Virus record (IMG/VR): IMGVR_UViG_3300013103_000076
Span: 1 to 20,519 of that record
DNA: 20,519 bases
From: a virus
Strand: one strand, 5' to 3'
Below the pieces are notes generated by a model that worked only from the letters and a program-made list of their open reading frames with translations, did not search any database and had not been told where the DNA came from. How positions within the stretch are numbered: position 1 is the stretch's first letter; each line of letters opens with the position of its first letter. Below, one piece after another: positions 4,282 through 20,519 of the stretch. The position numbers and the translations under genes were made by a program.

Positions 4282-4677
4282 ATGAAGGTTGTAGCAATAA
4301 GTAGAGATGGTATATATTATAAAATAGGAGATGATTATGATAGTGCTATTTGGTATGAAAGAGGTGAAAATTCTCCTCAATTACAGAGAGGAGATGACGT
4401 AGATGTAGAATATACAGTAAGAGAAATAAATGGAAGGAAGGTAAGAGTATTAACAAAGGTTACTAAAAATGAAAGTTCTCCTTCTATACAGAACAATTCT
4501 TCTGATGATAGAATAGTCGGTGATAGAACAGCAAGTATAGAGAGACAAGCCTTATTAAAAGCCGCTTGTCAAGCTATAAAAACGATGCCAGGTCAGTTTG
4601 CAACTGTTGATGAATTGGGAAATGATGTTATTAAATTATTTAGAAGATTAAAAGAGGAGTTTTACAGTGGTTCATAA
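4282..4677 (+). CDS. putative OB-fold protein of the replication module, 131 aa
   Basis: Residues 1-62 look like a small beta-rich domain (alternating hydrophobic residues, GDDVDVEYTVREINGRKVRVL at 38-57) compatible with an OB fold. A Ser/Asn/Asp-rich linker (63-84) follows, then a helical segment, SIERQALLKAACQAIK (85-100) and VIKLFRRLKEEF (116-127). An OB domain followed by an ERQxxLKAA helix recurs in small phage proteins found beside primases and ssDNA-binding functions. Binding of single-stranded DNA is inferred from that and from the position directly before the primase-helicase, which it overlaps by 11 nt. GGAGGT at 4271-4276 gives a strong start at 4282. Confidence 0.45.
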   Translation: MKVVAISRDGIYYKIGDDYDSAIWYERGENSPQLQRGDDVDVEYTVREINGRKVRVLTKVTKNESSPSIQNNSSDDRIVGDRTASIERQALLKAACQAIKTMPGQFATVDELGNDVIKLFRRLKEEFYSGS

Positions 4678-7600
4678 TAAATTGATAGATTATTTAAGTA
4701 AAAAAATTAAAAATTTTAGAGGTTCTAATTCTATATGCGTTTGTCCTAAATGCAATAAACCTTTGGCACAGATTAGACCTTTTTTAGGTTATAGTTTATT
4801 TTGCTTGAAGTGTGGAGATTTGGGGAATATCTATGATATTGTTAGACTAGTTGAAGAAGATAAGAAAGAGATGAGTAATGAAGAAATAGAAGAATATATC
4901 TCTAACTTATTGAATCTCAATATAATAACTAAAAAAGAAATTGATAAAATTCTAAATTTTTATAAGAAAAATAATTTTAGTTTATTAAGAATAATAAGAA
5001 ATGGTAAAATTCCTGTTGAGAAAAATTGGACTAATATAGAGCATAGAGATAAGGAAGAGTGGAAAAGATGGTTAGCTGAAAAAGCAAATATAGGAGTAAG
5101 AACAGGAAAAGTATCAGGAATAACAGTTATAGATATAGATAGTAAAGATTTACCTCCTTTAATAGATAGTATAGATACATTAGTGCAAGAAACAAATAAG
5201 GGGTTTCATTATATATTTAAGTATGATGAAGAATTACCAAAAACTAGAATTGATGAGTTAAAAATTGATATTGAAAACGATGGTGGTCAAATCATTGTTT
5301 CTCCATCCAGTATAGATGGATTTGTTAGGAAAATAAATTTTAAAGATATTGTAGAAATTCCTATTGAATTGAAAGAATGGTTATTGAAGAAAATGGTTGA
5401 GCCTAAAATTACAAAAAAGATAGAAACTTATACAGAGCTAACTACAGATTCAATAGGAAGTATAGAAGAAGGAAATAGAAATAGTTTGTTAATTAAACTA
5501 GGAGGAATATTTAGAAAACAATTTTCAACAAAAGAGACTACTACTGCTCTCTCTATCATTAATAATACCTTATGTAGTCCTAAGTTGCCACAGAGAGAAT
5601 TATATAATATAATAAAAAGTTTAAATAAATATACTGAGATAGATGAACGAGAGACTACATCTAAGGTTTTAGAGTATATAAAACTAGTAGGAGAAGCTAC
5701 TTCTAAGGATATAGAGCAAGCATTAAGAATAGAAAAAAAAGAGGTGGATAAAATATTAAGCTATTTGCTTAAAGAAGAGTATATAATAAAAATAAGACGG
5801 TTATATAAAGCATTAAAGAAAATAGAGTGGAAAGAAGAATTTTCTAATGAAAGTAGATTAATTGATTATAAAATGCCTTATTTCTATGATGTGGCTATTT
5901 TTAGAAATTCAGACCTTCTTATTTTTGGCTCTTCAACAAAAAGGGGAAAATGTTTAGCTTATGGATATTTACTAACAAATCAAGGATTTAAAAAAATAGA
6001 ACATATCGGTAAGAATAGAAAAGAAGGTATTAATAAAGTAAGCAGACATTTGCGTATTTGTTCTGCTACAAATAAAGAACATTCTTATAGAAATCCAAAT
6101 TATTTTTATAAAGAAAAAGTAAATGAGACTATAAAAATTGAGACATATTATGGTTTTGATTTAGAAGGTACTCCAGAACATCCTATATTAGTAATAGAAA
6201 CAATAAAAGAAAAATTAGATAAACCTAGAAAGTTTGGTAAAAGAACCATTTATTATAAAAGTAAACGAATCAAAAAATTTAAACAATTAAAAGATTTAAA
6301 AGAAGGTGATGAAGTTATTATATACTCTCCTCAATTATTTCCAACAGCACCTTATATTAGTAAATTTAATTATAAAAAAAATAAACATGTTACAAATATA
6401 AATGAAATAAATATTCCAAAAACTTTAGATTACGATTTTGCTCGCTTGTTGGGGTATATAGTGGGTGATGGTAATCTACAAAAAAATGGAATTAGCATTT
6501 ATCAAGACATAAAGTATGCCAATATAACAAAGGATATTGCAGATATTGTAAAAAAAATTGGGTTGCAACCAAAAATAAAGAAACAAAAAAAATCTAATTG
6601 TTATAGAATTAAAATTAACTCAGCAATTTTATATTCTTTTGTAAAAGAAAAGGTTTTTGGAATTAAAGCTAAAAAAATTAAAAATTTAAGATTACCTTTT
6701 CGGTTTGTACCCAATATTATATTGAATGGAAGCTACGAAGTTCAAAGAGGATTTATTGAAGCTATTTTTGATTGTGAAAGTTATTTAAGTAAAAGTGGTC
6801 TGTTATCTATTAGCATGGCAAACAAAGAATTGATAAAAACTTTACAGATGATGTTATTAAATTTTGGTATTATATCTAAGTTTAGAAGCAAAAAAAATAA
6901 GAAATATAATAGATATTATTATTATTTGATTTTGCCTGTTCAAATGACACATAAATTTTTTAAAATTTTTGATACAAAAAAGTATAATGTTAATCTTATT
7001 AAGAATCCACAAAAAAGAATATACCACATAAAAAATTTAGGCAATAATCAATATAAAAAAAGCAAGTACTTTATAGATACTATAGTAAAAAAAGAAATTA
7101 TACACAAAGAAAAATATGTCTATGATTTTAATATAGAAAATAATAAATATAAAGTAAACAATCAATTTTGGTGCAATGGGTTTGTAAATCATAATACTCA
7201 TATTGCACTAAATTTAATAGCTGATTTTGTGCAACAAGGTAAAAAACCTTATTATATTAATTTAGAAGCAGGTAATAGGTTTAGTATTATAGCTCTTCAT
7301 TTAGGATTAAAAGAGGGAGATTTTTATTATGCTACTGAATTCGATCCAGAAGAAATAGAGTTAGAAGATAACGCTATTACTATTATAGATTGGTTATTAC
7401 CAAAAGATTATTCTACTACTGATAAAATATTTCAACATTTTAGTAAACAATTAGTAAAACATAAAGGAAATTTGATAGTGTTTGTTCAATTGAGAAGTAA
7501 TGGTGATTTTTTTGCTAAAGATTTAATAGGTTTTTTTCCTTCTTTAGTGGCAAGGTACTTTTACGATGATGATACTGGTGAAACTGGATATTGGAATGTA

Positions 7601-7714
7601 GATTATATTAGGGAAAGTAAGCATAGGTATATTAAAGAAATGAAAATACCATGTAAGTATTTATGGGAAGAAAAAAGATTAATAAGAATAGATGAATTAG
7701 AAAGAGGTAAATAA
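4667..7714 (+). CDS. primase-helicase with intein in the Walker A motif
   Basis: A 1015-residue precursor; 600 residues remain after splicing. It starts at GTG with GAGGAG 7 nt upstream. Domains in order: a zinc ribbon (C26-x2-C29, C46-x2-C49), as in primases; a prim-pol (archaeo-eukaryotic primase) domain at about 105-240 with the metal motif VIDID (154-158), KGFHYIF (178-184) and GGQIIVSPSS (206-215); a PriCT-like helical segment EEGNRNSLLIKLGG (267-280); a winged-helix-like segment (330-385); and a RecA-type ATPase. The P-loop is GSSTKRGK (421-428) joined after splicing to T844. A Walker B-like AITIIDW follows, then a VFVQLRSN strand. It should prime and unwind DNA at the phage fork together with the family B polymerase encoded downstream. 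Without splicing the P-loop is broken, so the ATPase should be inactive. Confidence 0.88.
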   Translation: MVHNKLIDYLSKKIKNFRGSNSICVCPKCNKPLAQIRPFLGYSLFCLKCGDLGNIYDIVRLVEEDKKEMSNEEIEEYISNLLNLNIITKKEIDKILNFYKKNNFSLLRIIRNGKIPVEKNWTNIEHRDKEEWKRWLAEKANIGVRTGKVSGITVIDIDSKDLPPLIDSIDTLVQETNKGFHYIFKYDEELPKTRIDELKIDIENDGGQIIVSPSSIDGFVRKINFKDIVEIPIELKEWLLKKMVEPKITKKIETYTELTTDSIGSIEEGNRNSLLIKLGGIFRKQFSTKETTTALSIINNTLCSPKLPQRELYNIIKSLNKYTEIDERETTSKVLEYIKLVGEATSKDIEQALRIEKKEVDKILSYLLKEEYIIKIRRLYKALKKIEWKEEFSNESRLIDYKMPYFYDVAIFRNSDLLIFGSSTKRGKCLAYGYLLTNQGFKKIEHIGKNRKEGINKVSRHLRICSATNKEHSYRNPNYFYKEKVNETIKIETYYGFDLEGTPEHPILVIETIKEKLDKPRKFGKRTIYYKSKRIKKFKQLKDLKEGDEVIIYSPQLFPTAPYISKFNYKKNKHVTNINEINIPKTLDYDFARLLGYIVGDGNLQKNGISIYQDIKYANITKDIADIVKKIGLQPKIKKQKKSNCYRIKINSAILYSFVKEKVFGIKAKKIKNLRLPFRFVPNIILNGSYEVQRGFIEAIFDCESYLSKSGLLSISMANKELIKTLQMMLLNFGIISKFRSKKNKKYNRYYYYLILPVQMTHKFFKIFDTKKYNVNLIKNPQKRIYHIKNLGNNQYKKSKYFIDTIVKKEIIHKEKYVYDFNIENNKYKVNNQFWCNGFVNHNTHIALNLIADFVQQGKKPYYINLEAGNRFSIIALHLGLKEGDFYYATEFDPEEIELEDNAITIIDWLLPKDYSTTDKIFQHFSKQLVKHKGNLIVFVQLRSNGDFFAKDLIGFFPSLVARYFYDDDTGETGYWNVDYIRESKHRYIKEMKIPCKYLWEEKRLIRIDELERGK
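5951..7195 (+). mobile_element. LAGLIDADG intein in primase-helicase P-loop (415 aa)
   Basis: The intein runs from Cys429 (CLAYGYLLTN) to Asn843 (CNGFVNHN) and is followed by Thr as the +1 residue. The N-terminal splicing domain has block B GTPEHPI (TxxH at 502-505). The endonuclease domain has two LAGLIDADG helices, LLGYIVGDG (594-602, acid D601) and GFIEAIFDCES (695-705, acid D702). The C-terminal block F/G is VYDFNIENNKY...FVNHN. All expected splicing residues are present: Cys1, block B His, terminal His-Asn and +1 Thr. The endonuclease looks intact. The insertion lies between the P-loop lysine and threonine, a classic site for inteins in ATPases because the target DNA is highly conserved. 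Confidence 0.9.
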
Positions 7715-9283: not shown

Positions 9284-9764
9284 GTTAAAAGAAGGATATT
9301 ATTTAGGGTTAGATACCGCTTTAAAGACAGGTTGGTGTAAAATAAGAATAGTTAATGATAATATATTTATAGAGGGTGGGTCTGTAGATGTTAATAAAAT
9401 AAAAGGGATAAATAGATTATTTACTTTAATAGATGTTTTTAGGAAATTAATAACAGGTAAAGAGGACGCAATTATTATAGAAGATACTTTTAATAGGCTA
9501 AATCCAGTTGCTTTTAAGCTTATAAGCAGGATAGGAATGATAGTATTTGTTATAGGGTATATAAAAGGGATTAGAAATATGCAGTGGAAGTATGCTAATT
9601 CTGCAAGAAAAGAACTAGGATTTAAAGGAAATCTAAAAAAAGAAGAATTTCAAATACAGTTTTTAAATAAACTGGGAATAGAAGAGAAAGACAATGATTA
9701 CGTCGATGCTATAGCATTAGCTATGTCTGGAGCTAAATATGAGAAATATGGTTTTAAATGGTGA
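9195..9764 (+). CDS. RuvC-like Holliday-junction resolvase (RNase H fold)
   Basis: Predicted nuclease that cuts branched DNA during phage recombination and packaging. The RNase H-like core starts at YYLGLDTALKTGW (residues 35-47, catalytic D40), then AIIIEDTF (92-98, E96) and DNDYVDAIALAM (166-177, D168 and D171). This is the acidic D...E...DxxDA pattern of RuvC. The first 33 residues are unlike the family and overlap the zinc-ribbon gene. No ATG, GTG or TTG exists in frame between 9198 and the core, and AGGAG (9181-9185) precedes the ATG at 9195 by 9 nt, so this start is probably real. Length 189 aa fits. The gene overlaps the DNA methyltransferase by 26 nt. Confidence 0.72.
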   Translation: MKNGSIDAQCAGAKTYCLKKKKIQQKLNLKLKEGYYLGLDTALKTGWCKIRIVNDNIFIEGGSVDVNKIKGINRLFTLIDVFRKLITGKEDAIIIEDTFNRLNPVAFKLISRIGMIVFVIGYIKGIRNMQWKYANSARKELGFKGNLKKEEFQIQFLNKLGIEEKDNDYVDAIALAMSGAKYEKYGFKW

Positions 9765-11484
9765 TTGTTTAATAGAACTGAAAAAAATTCCTAGTAATAC
9801 TGTAGATTTGGTTGTCACTTGCTATTCAGAAGATACTGAGGTTTTAACTGATAAAGGCTGGAAATTTTTTAAAGACTTAAATAGAGAGGACTTAATCGCA
9901 ACTTTAAATCCTAAAACGGAATATTTAGAGTATCAAAAGCCTATCGAATATCAGAAAAGCTTTTATGAAGGAGAAATGTTTTTAATAGAACATAAGAATA
10001 TAAATTTATTAATTACACCTAATCATAATCTTTATTATCGTTCTCAATGGAATGCAAAAAAGAACAATTATAAACTTTCTCCTGTTAAGAATTTAAATCT
10101 TTCGGCTTCAACTTTAATATTTTTTAAAAATCAAGTTAAATGGGAAGGAAAAAGTGAAAAATATTTTATTTTGCCCGAAGTGAAACTGTCTCATAGATTT
10201 AAATATAAAAATATAAAAACAAAAATTCCGATAGAAGATTGGTTACATTTTTTGGGGTGGTTTATAGCCGAAGGTTCTTTAGGTAAAATTTCTAAAATAG
10301 TAATAACACAAAAGAAATATAAAGAAGAGATAGAAGAGCTCCTTAAGAGATTACCTTTTTCTTATAGGAAATATGAAAGAAGAAATGGAACTTGTGATTT
10401 TAAGATTACTTCTAAACAGCTTTATAATTATCTTCTTAAAAATATAGGAAAAAAACAAGAAGAAAGAAAGATACCAACAGAATTTCTTCGACTCAAAAAG
10501 AAATATCTATCTACTCTATTTGAAGCACTGATGAAAGGAGATGGAGATAACTTTAAGAGAGGACGATACTGGACGACATCTCCTTATTTGGCCAATCAAA
10601 TTCAAGAAATAATATTAAAATTGGAATATAACTCTAATTTAAAAATTAGAAAAAGAGAGAAACGGAAAAAATTTTATCAGATTTCTATTCAGAAAAATAA
10701 AGAATGTGAAATAAAGCTAAATAAACATATTAGAAAAATATTTTATAGAGGTTTTGTTTACTGTGTTTCTGTTCCTAATAAAACATTAGTTGTTCGAAGA
10801 CAAGGAAAAATAAGTATTTGTGGAAATAGCCCCCCTTATAATATAGGAATAGATTATGATAGTTGGAATGATAATTTAGATTGGAAAGATTATTATAATT
10901 GGTGTAGGAAATGGTTAAAAGAAACCTATAGAGTTTTAAAAGAAGATGGAAGATTTTGTTTAAATCATTATTTATCTTTAGGTAAGAGTTTTAAAAGAGA
11001 AGCTCCTCTAATGAACTTAAATTATATTAGTTGTTTTGAAATAGGATATAAACATCATTCTGTAGCTATATGGAAAGATATTACTTTGGCTAGAAAAACC
11101 GCTTGGGGAAGTTGGTTAAGTGCTTCTAGTCCATATTTAAACAGTCCTTTCGAGGGTATTTTGATATTGTATAAAAAGTATTGGAAAAAACAAAAAGAAG
11201 GAATAAGCACTATAAATAAACAGGATTTTATTGATGCTTGTAGAGGAATTTGGAATTTAGGAACAGATGGTAAAAGACTTACAAAAGCAACTTTCCCTGA
11301 AAAATTACCAGAATATTGCATTAATTTGCTCTCTTATAAAGGTGATTTAATTTTAGACCCTTTTGCTGGAAGTGGAACTACTTTGGTTGTTGCTAAGAGA
11401 TTAAAAAGAAATTATATAGGAATAGAGATTAGTAAGAGTTATTGTGATATTATTAAAAAGAGATTGGGACAAGAATATTTATGA
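9739..11484 (+). CDS. DNA methyltransferase (beta-class, N4-C/N6-A) with intein in TSPPY motif
   Basis: Precursor of 581 residues; 245 after splicing. The extein begins with LNGDCLIELKKIPSNTVDLVVT. After splicing this joins SPPYNIGIDYDSW, giving the catalytic motif IV TSPPY. The SAM-binding motif I, DPFAGSGTT, is near the C-terminus, followed by YIGIEISKSYCDIIKKR. Motif IV before motif I is the beta-class order. SPPY is common in N4-cytosine enzymes but also occurs in N6-adenine ones, so the target base is not fixed. It would modify phage DNA, perhaps against host restriction; no restriction partner is evident, although a PD-(D/E)XK nuclease gene follows with a 4-nt overlap. GGAG (9729-9732), 6 nt before the ATG at 9739, supports the start. 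Confidence 0.88.
   Translation: MRNMVLNGDCLIELKKIPSNTVDLVVTCYSEDTEVLTDKGWKFFKDLNREDLIATLNPKTEYLEYQKPIEYQKSFYEGEMFLIEHKNINLLITPNHNLYYRSQWNAKKNNYKLSPVKNLNLSASTLIFFKNQVKWEGKSEKYFILPEVKLSHRFKYKNIKTKIPIEDWLHFLGWFIAEGSLGKISKIVITQKKYKEEIEELLKRLPFSYRKYERRNGTCDFKITSKQLYNYLLKNIGKKQEERKIPTEFLRLKKKYLSTLFEALMKGDGDNFKRGRYWTTSPYLANQIQEIILKLEYNSNLKIRKREKRKKFYQISIQKNKECEIKLNKHIRKIFYRGFVYCVSVPNKTLVVRRQGKISICGNSPPYNIGIDYDSWNDNLDWKDYYNWCRKWLKETYRVLKEDGRFCLNHYLSLGKSFKREAPLMNLNYISCFEIGYKHHSVAIWKDITLARKTAWGSWLSASSPYLNSPFEGILILYKKYWKKQKEGISTINKQDFIDACRGIWNLGTDGKRLTKATFPEKLPEYCINLLSYKGDLILDPFAGSGTTLVVAKRLKRNYIGIEISKSYCDIIKKRLGQEYL
9820..10827 (+). mobile_element. LAGLIDADG intein in DNA methyltransferase (336 aa)
   Basis: The intein spans Cys28 (CYSEDTEVLTDKGW) to Asn363 and ends in ISICGN, with Ser as +1. 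Block B is TPNHNLY (TxxH at 93-96). LAGLIDADG helices are FLGWFIAEGS (171-180, acid E178) and LFEALMKGDGD (260-270, acid D268). Block F is FVYCVSVPNKTLVV. The penultimate residue is Gly instead of the usual His (GN rather than HN), which in known inteins can slow or alter Asn cyclisation but is tolerated in several. The insertion splits T from SPPY in the methyltransferase catalytic loop, so the unspliced protein should be inactive. Confidence 0.87.
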
Positions 11485-16072: not shown

Positions 16073-19000
16073 GTGAGTCATATGAGTATTTATACTTCAC
16101 CAATAATAACAGAATCATTTTTAAAAAAATATAAGAAAAGACAACCCAATTGGGGATTAAATGGATTAGGATATGTAGTGTATAAAAGAACATATTCTAG
16201 AATTAAGCCTAATGGAAGTAAAGAAGAGTGGTATGAAACAATAGCTAGATGTATAAACGGTGTTCAAGAGATAGGAGCAGAATATACTAAAGAAGAAGCA
16301 GAAAGATTATATGATTTAATATTTAATTTAAAATGTTCTTTTGCTGGGAGAATGTTGTGGCAGTTAGGAACAAAAAATGTTAAAAGATTTGGTGCAAATT
16401 CACTTCTTAATTGTTGGGGTATAAAACTAGATAGTATTGATAGTTTTTGTTTCTTATTTGAGAATCTAATGTTAGGAGGAGGAGTTGGATTTTCTATCAG
16501 AAGAGAAGATGTTCATGAATTGCCTAGAGTAAAAAAAGATGTAGTAATAACCCATAAGAATACTAAAGACGCAGATTTTATAGTACCTGATAGTAGAGAA
16601 GGATGGGTATATTTATTAAGAAAAGTATTAAAATCGTTTTTTTATTCAGGAAAATCCTTTACTTATTCTACTATATTGGTTAGAGGATATGGGGAACCAA
16701 TAAAAGGATTTGGAGGAACAGCCAGCGGTCCAAAAATTCTTATAAATGGAATAGAAAATATTTGTAAGATATTACGGGCAAGAGAAGGAAAAAAATTAAG
16801 ATCACTTGACGCTTTAGATATAGCAAATAATATTGCAAGCATTGTTGTTAGCGGTAATATCAGAAGATGTTTGCCTTATGATAGTCTAGTACATTGCAAA
16901 GATGGACTAAAAGAAATAGATAAAATTAAAGTTGATGATAAAGTACTAACTACTGAAGGATATAGAAAAGTAAAAAATATTTTTTATCAAGGAGAACAAG
17001 AAGTATATAAGATAACTACAGAAAATAGTGAATTTGAAGCCACTGGAAATCACAGAGTTGCTGTTATGATTTCTATCAATGAATATATTTGGAAAACTGT
17101 TAGAGATTTAAAGAAAGGTGATAATTTAATATTAACAAGAAAAAGTATTGAAGGTAAAAAAACTTATTTACCTTCTTGGGAATATATTAAACCAAAAAAA
17201 AGTACAACATGTAAGAATATAATAATTCCTGAGTTAGATGAAGATATTGCTTGGTTAATAGGAACTATCCATGCTAATGGTTATGTTTATGCTAATAAGG
17301 AAAAAAATGGTTTTAATGCTAGATTAACGATTGCTTTTAATAAAAAAGATATTAAATTGGCTCTTAAAGCAATTAGAATATTAAGAAGATTTAATGTTAA
17401 TCCAATTTTAAAAGAAAGAAAAAAAGAAAATACTATAGTAGTTAGAGTAATGTCAAAACAATTGGCATGGTACTTTTATAATAATATTAAAAAACCTAAA
17501 ACTCCTATAATAATACCTTCTTTTATTAAAGAAGCCAAGGAAAATATTAAATTAAGTTATTTATATGGAATTGCTGAATGTGATGGAGCTTTAAATAATA
17601 AACCAATTAGGATTGTTGGTACAATATATAATTCTTTTGCTTTAGATATTCAAAGATTATTATTTTCTTGTGGGATAGAAACAAAATTGGGAGGAGGCAA
17701 ATCTAGAAAAAATAAAAAATGGAAACCTATTTGGCATGTTTCTCTTATGAGTATTGATTCACAAAGAAAATTTTTGGATAAAAATAAACTTTTGAAATCT
17801 TTTAAAGTTAATAAATTTTCAAGATTATCAAATTCTTATTCAAAAGAATTGATTAAAAACAGTGGAATAAAAATAAAGATACAAGAAAAGTTATCTTTAG
17901 ATAGATACATCAAGAAAATCAGTGACAGAGTTGCTTATATACCTTCAAAAGTAATTAAAATTGAGAAAAGCAGGAAAGTTAAAACCTATGATATTGAAGT
18001 AAAAGATAAAAATGAATTTTTTTGTAATGGATATTTAGTACATAACTCAGCGACAATGGCTCTTGGTGATCCTGATGATTATTTGTTTATAAGAGCAAAA
18101 AGATGGAATAAGGGTAATATACCTAATTGGAGAGCTATGAGTAATAATACTATTTATGCTGATGATTATGATCATATTATTCCTGAAGTCTGGGAAGGTT
18201 ATAAAGGAAATGGAGAACCTTATGGTCTTTTTAATGTAGAACTATCTCAAAAGTATGGAAGATTGGGAGAGAAAATAAAAGACAATTGTGAATTACTAAA
18301 TCCTTGTGTTACTGGTGATACTTATATAAATACTGTTGAAAGAGGTTTTATCAAAATTGAAGATTTGTATAAACTTCAAGAAAGTGGTTTTGATGGGTTT
18401 TTAGAAGTTAAAAGAATAAAAGTACATTGTCTAGATAGAGCAAACCAAAAAAGTACTGCTTCCATCGTAAGAGTTTTTAAAACTAGAAAAAATGCAAAAA
18501 TAATTAAAATTAGAACAAGAGGAGGAGTCATAAAATGTACTTATGATCATCTTATAAATACTATAAATAGAGGATGGGTAAAGGCTATTGAGTTGAAAAA
18601 TAATGATATCTTATATGGACTAAGTGGTAGGAGTAATGTCGTTTGCGCTAGAGATATTCTTGGTGTAGAAAAAGTTGAGAATGAAGATGTATATGATATG
18701 TCTTTATTTAGTCAGCATAATTTTTTTGCTACTAGTGAATTAAAAGGAAAAAATGATATTAAATTTAGTGGTATCTGTATTCATAATTGTGGAGAGGTTA
18801 ATATTGAAAGTGCTGAATGCTGCAATTTGTCTGATACCTTTTTACCCAATGTTAATTCAAAAGAAGAATTATGGGATTGTATACGGTTATTATATAAGAC
18901 ACAGAAGACTGTTGCAGCAATGCCTTTTATACATGAAGTAACAAATAAAGTTGTTCATAGGAATATGAGATTAGGAATAGGAATAACAGGAATATGTCAA

Positions 19001-19459
19001 TCCTTGAATAAATTAGAATGGTTGGATAATATTTACAAAAAAATAAGAAAATTTGATAAGGAATGGAGTAAAAAAAGAGGATGGAATGAAAGTATAAAAT
19101 TAACTACTATAAAACCTAGTGGGTGTGGGGTGAAAGATACAGAAATAAGAACTGAAAAGGGAATAATGACTTATGAAGAAATATTTAGATATTTCGGCTA
19201 TGACATATATAAATATAAAAATAGAGTTTGGTTGCCTACAAAAAATAAAATACTTAAAGTATATAATAAAGAAAATAAGTTAGAGAAAATATCAAAATTA
19301 TATTTTAATGGAAAAGAAGAAGTATATAAATTTACTACAGAAGATGGGAAAACACATTATTTTACGAAAGATCATAGTTTTTTAGTAAGAAATAAAGGTT
19401 GGATAAAAGTAAAAGACTTAAAAGAAGGAGATGATATAATTGAGTATAGAGAAATGTAA
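16073..19459 (+). CDS. nrdJ: class II ribonucleotide reductase N-terminal part, broken by two inteins and half of a split intein
   Basis: Adenosylcobalamin-type reductase that makes deoxynucleotides, closest in pattern to the monomeric Lactobacillus enzyme (RTPR). Visible motifs: YKRTYSR (37-43), LLNCW with C114 (first redox cysteine), GGGVGFS (135-141), FGGTASGP (213-220), SGNIRR (260-265) joined to SATMALGD, LLNP (741-744) joined to CGEVNIESAECCNL (C906 catalytic thiyl cysteine, E908), and LTTIKPSG (1010-1017). The 1128-residue product contains 463 extein residues; relatives have about 740. The C-terminal quarter, with the terminal CxxC pair, is absent and must come from a second gene past this window. 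The GTG at 16073 has AGGAG 7 nt upstream; an ATG at 16082 is a weaker alternative. Active enzyme needs two cis- and one trans-splicing reactions. Confidence 0.9.
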   Translation: MSHMSIYTSPIITESFLKKYKKRQPNWGLNGLGYVVYKRTYSRIKPNGSKEEWYETIARCINGVQEIGAEYTKEEAERLYDLIFNLKCSFAGRMLWQLGTKNVKRFGANSLLNCWGIKLDSIDSFCFLFENLMLGGGVGFSIRREDVHELPRVKKDVVITHKNTKDADFIVPDSREGWVYLLRKVLKSFFYSGKSFTYSTILVRGYGEPIKGFGGTASGPKILINGIENICKILRAREGKKLRSLDALDIANNIASIVVSGNIRRCLPYDSLVHCKDGLKEIDKIKVDDKVLTTEGYRKVKNIFYQGEQEVYKITTENSEFEATGNHRVAVMISINEYIWKTVRDLKKGDNLILTRKSIEGKKTYLPSWEYIKPKKSTTCKNIIIPELDEDIAWLIGTIHANGYVYANKEKNGFNARLTIAFNKKDIKLALKAIRILRRFNVNPILKERKKENTIVVRVMSKQLAWYFYNNIKKPKTPIIIPSFIKEAKENIKLSYLYGIAECDGALNNKPIRIVGTIYNSFALDIQRLLFSCGIETKLGGGKSRKNKKWKPIWHVSLMSIDSQRKFLDKNKLLKSFKVNKFSRLSNSYSKELIKNSGIKIKIQEKLSLDRYIKKISDRVAYIPSKVIKIEKSRKVKTYDIEVKDKNEFFCNGYLVHNSATMALGDPDDYLFIRAKRWNKGNIPNWRAMSNNTIYADDYDHIIPEVWEGYKGNGEPYGLFNVELSQKYGRLGEKIKDNCELLNPCVTGDTYINTVERGFIKIEDLYKLQESGFDGFLEVKRIKVHCLDRANQKSTASIVRVFKTRKNAKIIKIRTRGGVIKCTYDHLINTINRGWVKAIELKNNDILYGLSGRSNVVCARDILGVEKVENEDVYDMSLFSQHNFFATSELKGKNDIKFSGICIHNCGEVNIESAECCNLSDTFLPNVNSKEELWDCIRLLYKTQKTVAAMPFIHEVTNKVVHRNMRLGIGITGICQSLNKLEWLDNIYKKIRKFDKEWSKKRGWNESIKLTTIKPSGCGVKDTEIRTEKGIMTYEEIFRYFGYDIYKYKNRVWLPTKNKILKVYNKENKLEKISKLYFNGKEEVYKFTTEDGKTHYFTKDHSFLVRNKGWIKVKDLKEGDDIIEYREM
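16868..18046 (+). mobile_element. LAGLIDADG intein in nrdJ after SGNIRR (393 aa)
   Basis: The intein runs from Cys266 (CLPYDSLVHCKDGLKEI) to Asn658 (FFCNGYLVHN), with +1 Ser from SATMALGD. The N-terminal splicing domain includes an ATGNHRV block B (GNH in place of the usual TxxH). The endonuclease helices are AWLIGTIHANG (first motif, with N instead of the usual catalytic acid near its end) and YLYGIAECDGA (second motif, acidic CDG). Block F/G is TYDIEVKDKNEFF...LVHN. Splicing residues are intact. The altered first LAGLIDADG motif (HANG rather than GDG/AEG) suggests the endonuclease may be weakened or dead. Confidence 0.88.
18305..18787 (+). mobile_element. mini-intein in nrdJ directly before catalytic cysteine (161 aa)
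   Basis: The intein runs from Cys745 (CVTGDTYINTVERGFIKI) to Asn905 (SGICIHN); the +1 residue is Cys906 of CGEVNIES. Block B is CTYDHLI, and block F is VYDMSLFSQHNFF. Between the N-terminal and C-terminal splicing parts there is no endonuclease domain, so it is a mini-intein. In the spliced protein LLNP joins CGE, restoring the NPCGE motif whose cysteine carries the thiyl radical in ribonucleotide reductases. The same cysteine must therefore serve as the nucleophile of splicing. Confidence 0.88.
19124..19459 (+). mobile_element. N-terminal half of a split intein at the end of the nrdJ ORF
   Basis: After LTTIKPSG the frame continues as CGVKDTEIRTEKGIMTYEE (Cys1018 onward), which is intein block A. 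Then come a strand-rich segment, KFTTEDGKTHYFTKDHSFLV (block B with TKDH), and the closing block GWIKVKDLKEGDDIIEY. The frame ends at a TAA after EYREM. The 111 residues match a complete N-terminal split-intein half, which usually ends right after this last strand. In relatives KPSG is followed by T, so +1 Thr (or Ser) is expected on the missing C-terminal part. No C-terminal intein half (block F/G, HN) lies in the remaining 1060 bases. Confidence 0.85.
19425..19430 (+). promoter_or_regulatory. ribosome binding site AAGGAG deciding a TTG start
   Basis: AAGGAG lies inside the last codons of the split-intein half and 9 nt before TTG at 19440. A stop codon in the endonuclease frame (19437-19439) directly precedes the TTG, so no earlier start is possible. 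The next ATG (19563) would cut away the first two cysteines of the zinc knuckle, so the TTG is favoured. Confidence 0.65.
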
Positions 19460-20519
19460 AAAATGTGGGGGAAAGTTTAGAAAAAATGCTCGTAAAGGCA
19501 AGACAGTCACTTTTTTACATATACCAAGTAATGAAGAAGTAACTTTAACTGCGTTTAAAGATATGTGTTATTTTTGTGCTAAAAATGAATACGCAAACTG
19601 GATTAAAAAACGCAATTTAAAAATGAATGGAAGATTTCAAAAAGAGTTTTGGATATATCATTTCCCAGAATATAAAAATAAAATTGAAAATAGATCACAA
19701 GGAAAAGGATCTTTACAACATTACTTAAATATTGGAAGAACAGAAAAAGATTATAAAGAAAAAAACAAACTGTTATCAGTTGGTTACGATACATTAAAGA
19801 GAAATGGTTTATCAGAAAGTGAAATAAAAGGAATAAAAGATAAACATTCAAAAAAATCTGCTATAAATCTTGAAAATTTAATAAGAATATATGGAAAAAA
19901 AGAAGGAACGCAAAGATATATATCTCGGTTATTATCTTCGAGAGAAAGGAGTATATGGTGTAGAGAATACTGGGTTAAAAAGGGATATACTATCAAAGAA
20001 GCAAAAGAAAAGATTTCTAAACTACAAATAAGAGATAAACATTGGTTTATAAAAAAATATGGTACAAAAGTTGGGTTAAAGAAATATAAAGACTGGTGTA
20101 GAAAAAAGTCTGTAACATTAGATAATTATATATCTAAATACGGAGATAAACTCGGTAAGAAAAAATTTAATAAAGTAAGAAGTAATAAAACTTATTCTAA
20201 TTTAGAATATAATTTTTTTAAAGATTTGGTTGCAAGATATGAAAAAAAGAAGAATGTTTTTTGGGGGGATAACCAATGGAAATTTGGTCTGAGAAAAAGT
20301 GAATGGAAATATTATAATAAAAAGGTTTTTTATATAGATTTTTTAGATAAAGATAAAAAGAAAATTATAGAGTTTAATGGAGATTTATTTCATGCCAACA
20401 AATTATTTTTTGCAGAAGATGACATCTGCAATCCTTTTAATAAGTTAACAGCTAAAGAAATATGGGAAAATGACAGAAGAAGGTATGAATTTTACACAAA
20501 GTTAGGATATAAATATTTA
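19440..20519 (+). CDS. freestanding Vsr-like (EDxHD-type) homing endonuclease, 3' end outside window
   Basis: The frame is open for 360 codons to the right edge, so the gene is partial. It overlaps the end of the nrdJ/split-intein gene by 20 nt. Domains: an N-terminal zinc ribbon (C6-x2-C9, C43-x2-C46); a middle region with three repeats of a KYG-type DNA-binding module (RIYGKKEGTQRY at 149-160, KKYGTKVGLKKY at 205-216, SKYGDKLGKKKF at 232-243); then a Vsr/PD-(D/E)XK-like nuclease domain with NLEYNFFKDL (254-263), YIDF (298-301), IIEFNGDLFHAN (309-320) and KEIWENDRRR (339-348). The EFxGDxxHAN signature is that of phage homing endonucleases of the very-short-patch-repair fold. It would cut an uninterrupted reductase allele to spread this locus; the target is inferred. 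TTG start with AAGGAG. Confidence 0.85.
   Translation, partial: MSIEKCKKCGGKFRKNARKGKTVTFLHIPSNEEVTLTAFKDMCYFCAKNEYANWIKKRNLKMNGRFQKEFWIYHFPEYKNKIENRSQGKGSLQHYLNIGRTEKDYKEKNKLLSVGYDTLKRNGLSESEIKGIKDKHSKKSAINLENLIRIYGKKEGTQRYISRLLSSRERSIWCREYWVKKGYTIKEAKEKISKLQIRDKHWFIKKYGTKVGLKKYKDWCRKKSVTLDNYISKYGDKLGKKKFNKVRSNKTYSNLEYNFFKDLVARYEKKKNVFWGDNQWKFGLRKSEWKYYNKKVFYIDFLDKDKKKIIEFNGDLFHANKLFFAEDDICNPFNKLTAKEIWENDRRRYEFYTKLGYKYL

What the first reader, a model, noticed from the sequence alone, without database searches (positions are those of the whole stretch)
19081..20519. Fractured nrdJ: split-intein half followed by a freestanding Vsr-like homing endonuclease
The reductase ORF stops after a complete N-terminal intein half, placed exactly between KPSG and the expected T of a conserved motif. 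A homing endonuclease gene starts 20 nt before that stop from its own ribosome binding site. This is the 'fractured gene' layout known mainly from environmental phage DNA (as I recall, work of Pietrokovski and colleagues, who also linked it to EDxHD/Vsr-like endonucleases). The prediction is that a C-terminal intein half plus the last quarter of NrdJ follows the endonuclease just beyond the window, and the two proteins are joined by trans-splicing. Here the same gene also carries two contiguous inteins, which would be an unusually complex case and a potential new source of a fast split intein.
Basis: partly seen in the sequence, partly recalled or inferred. Interest (0 to 1): 0.9.

Follow-up and report, generated by a model that had tools for sequence, protein, structure and literature searches.

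The report
Phage reductase gene broken at split-intein
A phage gene for making DNA building blocks is broken in two at an intein, with a DNA-cutting selfish gene sitting at the break; this is a clear new example of a known arrangement ("fractured genes"), in which the two protein halves are expected to rejoin themselves by trans-splicing.

Summary
The class II reductase ORF (nrdJ, 16073-19459) ends in a 111-residue intein N-half (19124-19456) placed exactly at KPSG|T. A homing-endonuclease gene starts at 19440, 20 nt before that stop, in another frame with its own Shine-Dalgarno, and runs off the contig. The same ORF holds two contiguous inteins (16868-18046, 18305-18787).

The predicted C-half lies beyond the contig, so it was sought in relatives. 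Five viral loci carry the whole arrangement at the homologous reductase site: IntN-stop, same endonuclease family, then IntC...HN|T plus the reductase C-terminus. Two (L038, L044) are the same NrdJ type (HN|TLSLLGG...GGACP). The closest endonuclease found (37% identical over its length) sits at this same site. In 69 of 80 endonuclease clusters an intein C-half directly follows, against 6 of 251 control ORFs. The nuclease domain has the Vsr / I-Bth0305I (EDxHD) fold with its catalytic residues. The phage Aes123 relative belongs to an intein with demonstrated trans-splicing.

Not shown: this phage's own C-half, its splicing and homing. The split site differs from that of NrdJ-1.

The parts
16073..16867 (+). 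NrdJ N-extein, segment a (GTG start)
   Evidence: RTPR/RNR models; alignment with intact viral NrdJ
16868..18046 (+). Contiguous intein 1 (393 aa, LAGLIDADG_3), between NIRR and SATMALGD
   Evidence: PF14890, PF14528; relatives read straight through
18047..18304 (+). NrdJ extein segment b
   Evidence: alignment
18305..18787 (+). Contiguous mini-intein 2 (161 aa), inserted NP|CGE directly before the reductase's radical Cys
   Evidence: TIGR01445 best stretch 745-828; boundaries from alignment; catalytic role of the Cys from knowledge of class II RNR
18788..19123 (+). NrdJ extein segment c ending TTIKPSG
   Evidence: 60-68% identical to 14 viral loci
19124..19456 (+). Split-intein N-half (111 aa, Cys1, block B TKDH), stop TAA 19457-19459
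   Evidence: aligned with IntN of L038, L029 and homologous-site inteins of L030, L032
19425..19430 (+). Shine-Dalgarno AAGGAG of the endonuclease gene, inside the IntN coding sequence
   Evidence: sequence
19440..20519 (+). Freestanding homing-endonuclease gene (TTG start, overlaps the nrdJ stop by 20 nt, cut by contig end): N-terminal Cys pairs, KYG-type repeats, C-terminal nuclease
20196..20519 (+). Vsr/EDxHD nuclease domain of the endonuclease (residues 253-360; conserved D300, E311, D315, H318, D345), C-terminus missing
   Evidence: invariant columns; PDB profile hits; fold match of closest relative

Best explanation
This is a fractured class II reductase gene. The first ORF makes the N-terminal ~463 extein residues of NrdJ followed by an intein N-half; a second ORF makes a Vsr/EDxHD homing endonuclease; a third ORF, just past the contig end, makes an intein C-half (about 34-40 residues ending HN) followed by T and the last ~185 residues of NrdJ. 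The two intein halves associate and ligate KPSG to T by trans-splicing, while two contiguous inteins in the first ORF excise in cis, so one active reductase needs three splicing events. All three inteins sit at conserved motifs of the reductase, two of them in the active site, so the precursors should be inactive until spliced. The endonuclease most likely cuts intein-less alleles at this conserved codon stretch, so that repair copies the whole IntN-endonuclease-IntC block. Shown here: IntN, the site, the endonuclease family and fold, and the full layout in relatives. Inferred: this phage's own C-half, trans-splicing and homing.
For: Exact placement at KPSG|T against intact NrdJ. Five complete relatives at the homologous site with this endonuclease family: L038 and L044 (same NrdJ type), L039, L091, L029. 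Closest endonuclease (L039, 37% over the full length, E 5e-69) is at this same site. Of 80 clusters of the endonuclease family, 69 are followed by an intein C-half by a fixed pattern, versus 6 of 251 control ORFs; three more are visible by eye (L038, L044, L010). Endonuclease tree follows insertion site: 16 changes for 14 sites, minimum 13, shuffled mean 46. Nuclease fold: I-Bth0305I Z 10.7, Vsr Z 10.4. Aes123 PolB relative, same layout with 16-17-nt overlaps, is the source of a trans-splicing intein with measured kinetics (PMC11923092).
Against: The C-half is not in the window and no overlapping contig was found. No splicing or cleavage data. The nuclease model is of the relative L039; the window's own truncated protein modelled poorly (pLDDT 57). 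The endonuclease starts with TTG, not ATG. The tree does not show the reductase-site endonucleases to be one clade (3 changes).
Confidence: 0.92

Rival explanations
1. A contiguous large intein with an in-frame endonuclease, apparently broken only by a sequencing or assembly error near 19440-19459.
For: The two frames overlap in a 20-nt stretch, where a single indel would fuse them.
Against: The endonuclease frame is closed at 19437-19439 directly before a TTG with a well-spaced AAGGAG. Relatives independently show separate ORFs with small overlaps or gaps on both sides of the endonuclease. This nuclease family sits between intein halves in most loci.
Confidence: 0.04
2. Genes in pieces without splicing (as in Aeh1 nrdA/mobE): the two NrdJ parts assemble non-covalently, or the gene is dead.
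For: A known fate of a phage reductase split by an endonuclease (Friedrich 2007, cited in PMC3653736).
Against: The first part ends in a complete intein N-half with Cys1 and block B, not in a bare extein; the break lies in the conserved KPSG|T motif; exteins keep the catalytic NPC and CC motifs and 61-68% identity with intact NrdJ.
Confidence: 0.03
3. The endonuclease is an unrelated neighbour and the C-terminal part of NrdJ is elsewhere or lost.
For: The contig ends inside the endonuclease.
Against: The same endonuclease family is followed directly by an intein C-half in 69 of 80 clusters, and in all five complete loci at this site.
Confidence: 0.03

Closest known systems
[quoted passage not shown] 2009, NAR 37:2560)
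   Same: Gene broken at a split intein, freestanding endonuclease in the break; [quoted passage not shown]
   Different: Text not held here, so site-by-site identity could not be checked; this case carries two further contiguous inteins in the same ORF
Aes123 PolB1 split intein (Aeromonas phage, JN377899)
   Same: IntN ORF, Vsr-type endonuclease with a 16-nt overlap, IntC ORF; endonuclease homologous; trans-splicing shown (PMC11923092)
   Different: Host gene is DNA polymerase; cysteine-less intein, whereas this one starts with Cys
NrdJ-1 split intein
   Same: Split intein in a reductase, marine metagenome origin
   Different: Native exteins NPC|SEI with Ser+1 (PMC13123727); this one is at KPSG|T with Thr+1 expected. 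The window's contiguous intein 2 (NP|CGE) lies one residue from the NrdJ-1 site
L038 / L044 (IMG/VR contigs)
   Same: Same NrdJ type, same site, same endonuclease family, complete with C-half
   Different: No contiguous inteins; L038 endonuclease only 32% identical, on another branch of the tree
I-Bth0305I (EDxHD) and E. coli Vsr
   Same: Nuclease fold and conserved acidic/His residues
   Different: I-Bth0305I is intron-encoded; Vsr is a repair enzyme; identity 15-18%
Trichodesmium erythraeum dnaE (own knowledge)
   Same: One gene with contiguous inteins plus a split intein
   Different: Cyanobacterial chromosome, no endonuclease gene in the break

Membership tests
Fractured gene with split intein (Dassa 2009 type) | ORF ends in an intein N-half inserted in a conserved motif of the host protein | tested here: met
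Fractured gene with split intein (Dassa 2009 type) | Split at the usual endonuclease position (IntN about 100 aa) | tested here: met
   IntN 111 aa; usual size about 100 aa per PMC11923092
Fractured gene with split intein (Dassa 2009 type) | Freestanding endonuclease gene directly after the N-half | tested here: met
Fractured gene with split intein (Dassa 2009 type) | Following ORF with IntC ending HN and the rest of the host protein | not testable with these tools
   contig ends at 20519; met in five relatives at the same site
Fractured gene with split intein (Dassa 2009 type) | Trans-splicing of the two halves | not testable with these tools
   needs experiment; shown for the Aes123 relative (PMC11923092)
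EDxHD / Vsr-like homing endonuclease | Conserved acidic and His catalytic residues | tested here: met
   D300, E311, D315, H318, D345 invariant in 11 homologues; D, E, G, D, H invariant in 62 rows
EDxHD / Vsr-like homing endonuclease | Vsr/PD-(D/E)XK nuclease fold | tested here: met
   model of closest relative pLDDT 92; I-Bth0305I Z 10.7 rmsd 2.6 over 96 residues, Vsr Z 10.4; profile to Vsr E 0.003. The window's own truncated protein was not modelled well
EDxHD / Vsr-like homing endonuclease | Cleavage of, and homing into, the intein-less site | not testable with these tools
   only indirect: endonuclease tree follows insertion site
Genes-in-pieces reductase (Aeh1 nrdA type) | Break without splicing element | tested here: not met
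   intein N-half at the break

The most novel reading that the evidence does not exclude
One reductase site (the residue before the conserved T of PxG|T) has passed through a series: contiguous mini-intein (Campylobacter phage PC14), break with a different, HNH-looking endonuclease (Klebsiella phage phiKp_21), and break with Vsr/EDxHD endonucleases (window and five relatives). This would suggest that endonuclease genes repeatedly invade and break mini-inteins, and that this nuclease family lives almost only in such breaks, with lineages bound to one insertion site. The window would add a reductase that needs two cis- and one trans-splicing event.
Probability: 0.5. Interest if true: 0.5.

Novelty: new member of a known kind. 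Interest (0 to 1): 0.42.

Why it matters
It adds a Thr+1, Cys1 split intein at a site other than that of NrdJ-1, with complete natural relatives (L038, L044) that can be made and tested at once; fast split inteins are widely used tools. The family survey gives a simple rule: finding this endonuclease in a phage contig nearly always marks a split intein, in both the usual and the N-terminal split form, so it is a practical search handle. The link between endonuclease lineage and insertion site makes the homing role testable.

Tried and rejected
Exact-match scan with the window's last bases found no overlapping contig. Whole-window megablast against phages: no match. Structure prediction of the window's truncated endonuclease gave pLDDT 57 and was not used; the nuclease domain of L039 with 62 rows gave 92. 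Pfam and NCBIfam have no significant model for the endonuclease. Dassa 2009 and Carvajal-Vallejos 2012 are not held. Considered and set aside: frameshift error, genes-in-pieces without splicing, unrelated neighbour (see rivals). L007-L009 appear to have the endonuclease after, not before, the C-half ORF, an exception to the rule. L029 and L091 join as long branches in the tree, so that pair may be false.

Full report
Observation. The window is a complete 20,519-base viral record. ORF 16073-19459 encodes a B12-type ribonucleotide reductase (RTPR model 8e-60; phrog_367 5e-83). Three intein blocks interrupt it. Intein 1 (393 aa, 16868-18046) has LAGLIDADG_3 matches; intein 2 (161 aa, 18305-18787) is a mini-intein inserted NP|CGE; the third starts at 19124 right after TTIKPSG and ends at the stop 19457-19459 after 111 residues. 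With the inteins left out, the 463 extein residues align with intact viral NrdJ at 61-68% identity, and those proteins read KPSGTLSLLAG... across the break.

The endonuclease gene. It starts TTG at 19440, 20 nt before the nrdJ stop, 9 nt after AAGGAG. Its frame is closed by a TAA immediately before the TTG, so it cannot be a plain continuation of the intein. It has N-terminal Cys pairs, a repeated KYG-type module (the BLASTP alignments overlap one another) and a C-terminal nuclease domain cut short by the contig end, about 34 residues early judged by its closest relative.

What follows the endonuclease. The contig ends, and no identical contig extends it. The prediction was therefore tested in relatives. 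A pattern scan for HN|TLSLL(A/G)G found L038: the same NrdJ type, TTIKPSG|CVVPSTK... ending in a stop, a freestanding endonuclease, then MKLIKKEICENFTVDCEVEDTHCYQLENGIVSHN|TLSLLGGATPG...CEGGACPVR. The endonuclease survey gave a second, L044, with the same layout, and two further reductases broken at the homologous site, L039 (KPEG|T) and L091 (APTG|T); L029, from a huge uncultured phage, is a fifth (APTG|T). The closest endonuclease of all, L039 at 37% identity over the full length, sits at this same site.

How general the association is. Ninety loci of the endonuclease family fall into 80 clusters at 90% identity. A fixed pattern for an intein C-half at the start of the next ORF is met in 69 clusters, and in 6 of 251 control ORFs taken more than 2.5 kb away. 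The pattern misses at least three that are plain by eye (L038, L044, L010), and several others are cut by the contig end. The loci were retrieved by the endonuclease alone, so the association is not circular, though they are the relatives nearest to the window's protein and not all Vsr-like phage nucleases. Host genes include PolB, TerL, DnaB-like helicase, RecA-like, IMPDH, NrdD and dUTPase (assigned by eye from flanking motifs). In a tree of 72 endonucleases the insertion site needs 16 changes, minimum 13, shuffled mean 46; 23 PolB rows fall on one side of a branch. This fits endonucleases that home to one site, though related phages contribute to the clustering.

Fold of the nuclease. D, E, G, D and H are invariant in 62 rows, and with D345 in 11 rows. 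A profile finds Vsr and I-Bth0305I in the PDB, weakly (E 0.003 and 0.045). The model of the L039 domain (pLDDT 92) matches I-Bth0305I best (Z 10.7, 2.6 A over 96 residues), then Vsr (Z 10.4). Mitochondrial ribosome proteins reach Z 9 in the same list, so the fold call rests on fold, profile and residues together.

Mechanism. The Aeromonas phage Aes123 record shows the same three-ORF layout around a homologous endonuclease, and its intein trans-splices (PMC11923092). By analogy, the window's IntN and the missing IntC should ligate KPSG to T. From knowledge of reductase structure, PSG|T lies in the substrate-phosphate loop and NP|C precedes the radical cysteine, so unspliced precursors should be inactive. 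Splicing and homing for this phage are inference.

Relation to known work. Fractured genes with split inteins and a new endonuclease family were described by Dassa et al. 2009 (cited in PMC3653736, which credits them with 7 nrdA and 2 nrdJ cases; the paper itself is not held). This is therefore a new member of a known kind. It is not the NrdJ-1 intein, whose native exteins are NPC and SEI (PMC13123727). At the same reductase site one also finds a contiguous mini-intein (Campylobacter phage PC14, L030) and a break with a different endonuclease that looks HNH-type by eye (Klebsiella phage phiKp_21, L032), which hints at an evolutionary series.

Noticed in passing
window 4667-7714: Primase/helicase-like protein (Prim-Pol, PriCT_1) with a further LAGLIDADG intein in its P-loop (GSSTKRGK|C...HN|THIALN). 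With the methylase intein, the 20.5-kb contig holds four contiguous inteins plus one split one.
   Followed up: partly
window 9739-11484: DNA methylase (N6_N4_Mtase 4e-44) interrupted by a LAGLIDADG intein at its catalytic SPPY motif; the intein ends GN instead of HN.
   Followed up: partly
window 16868-18046: Intein 1's first LAGLIDADG motif reads LIGTIHANG, with Asn where the catalytic Asp is usual; its endonuclease may be inactive.
   Followed up: no
L043, L059, L063, L064, L067, L068, L078, L080, L083, L087, L095, L113: The same endonuclease family also sits at breaks where the downstream intein part is 110-150 residues long or more and contains block B, i.e. the atypical N-terminal split, mainly in P-loop ATPases and terminase.
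   Followed up: partly
L004 8985-10819: A second fractured gene in the same viral contig as the broken NrdD: an NrdG-like protein with a split intein and a different endonuclease between the halves.
   Followed up: no
L031 (Campylobacter phage CP21) 1500-5620: PolB annotated as many small ORFs; part of this is a split intein with this endonuclease family.
   Followed up: partly
L119: The only bacterial-genome hit is a Rickettsiales MAG contig that carries a fractured PolB and phage-like genes, so probably a misbinned phage.
   Followed up: partly
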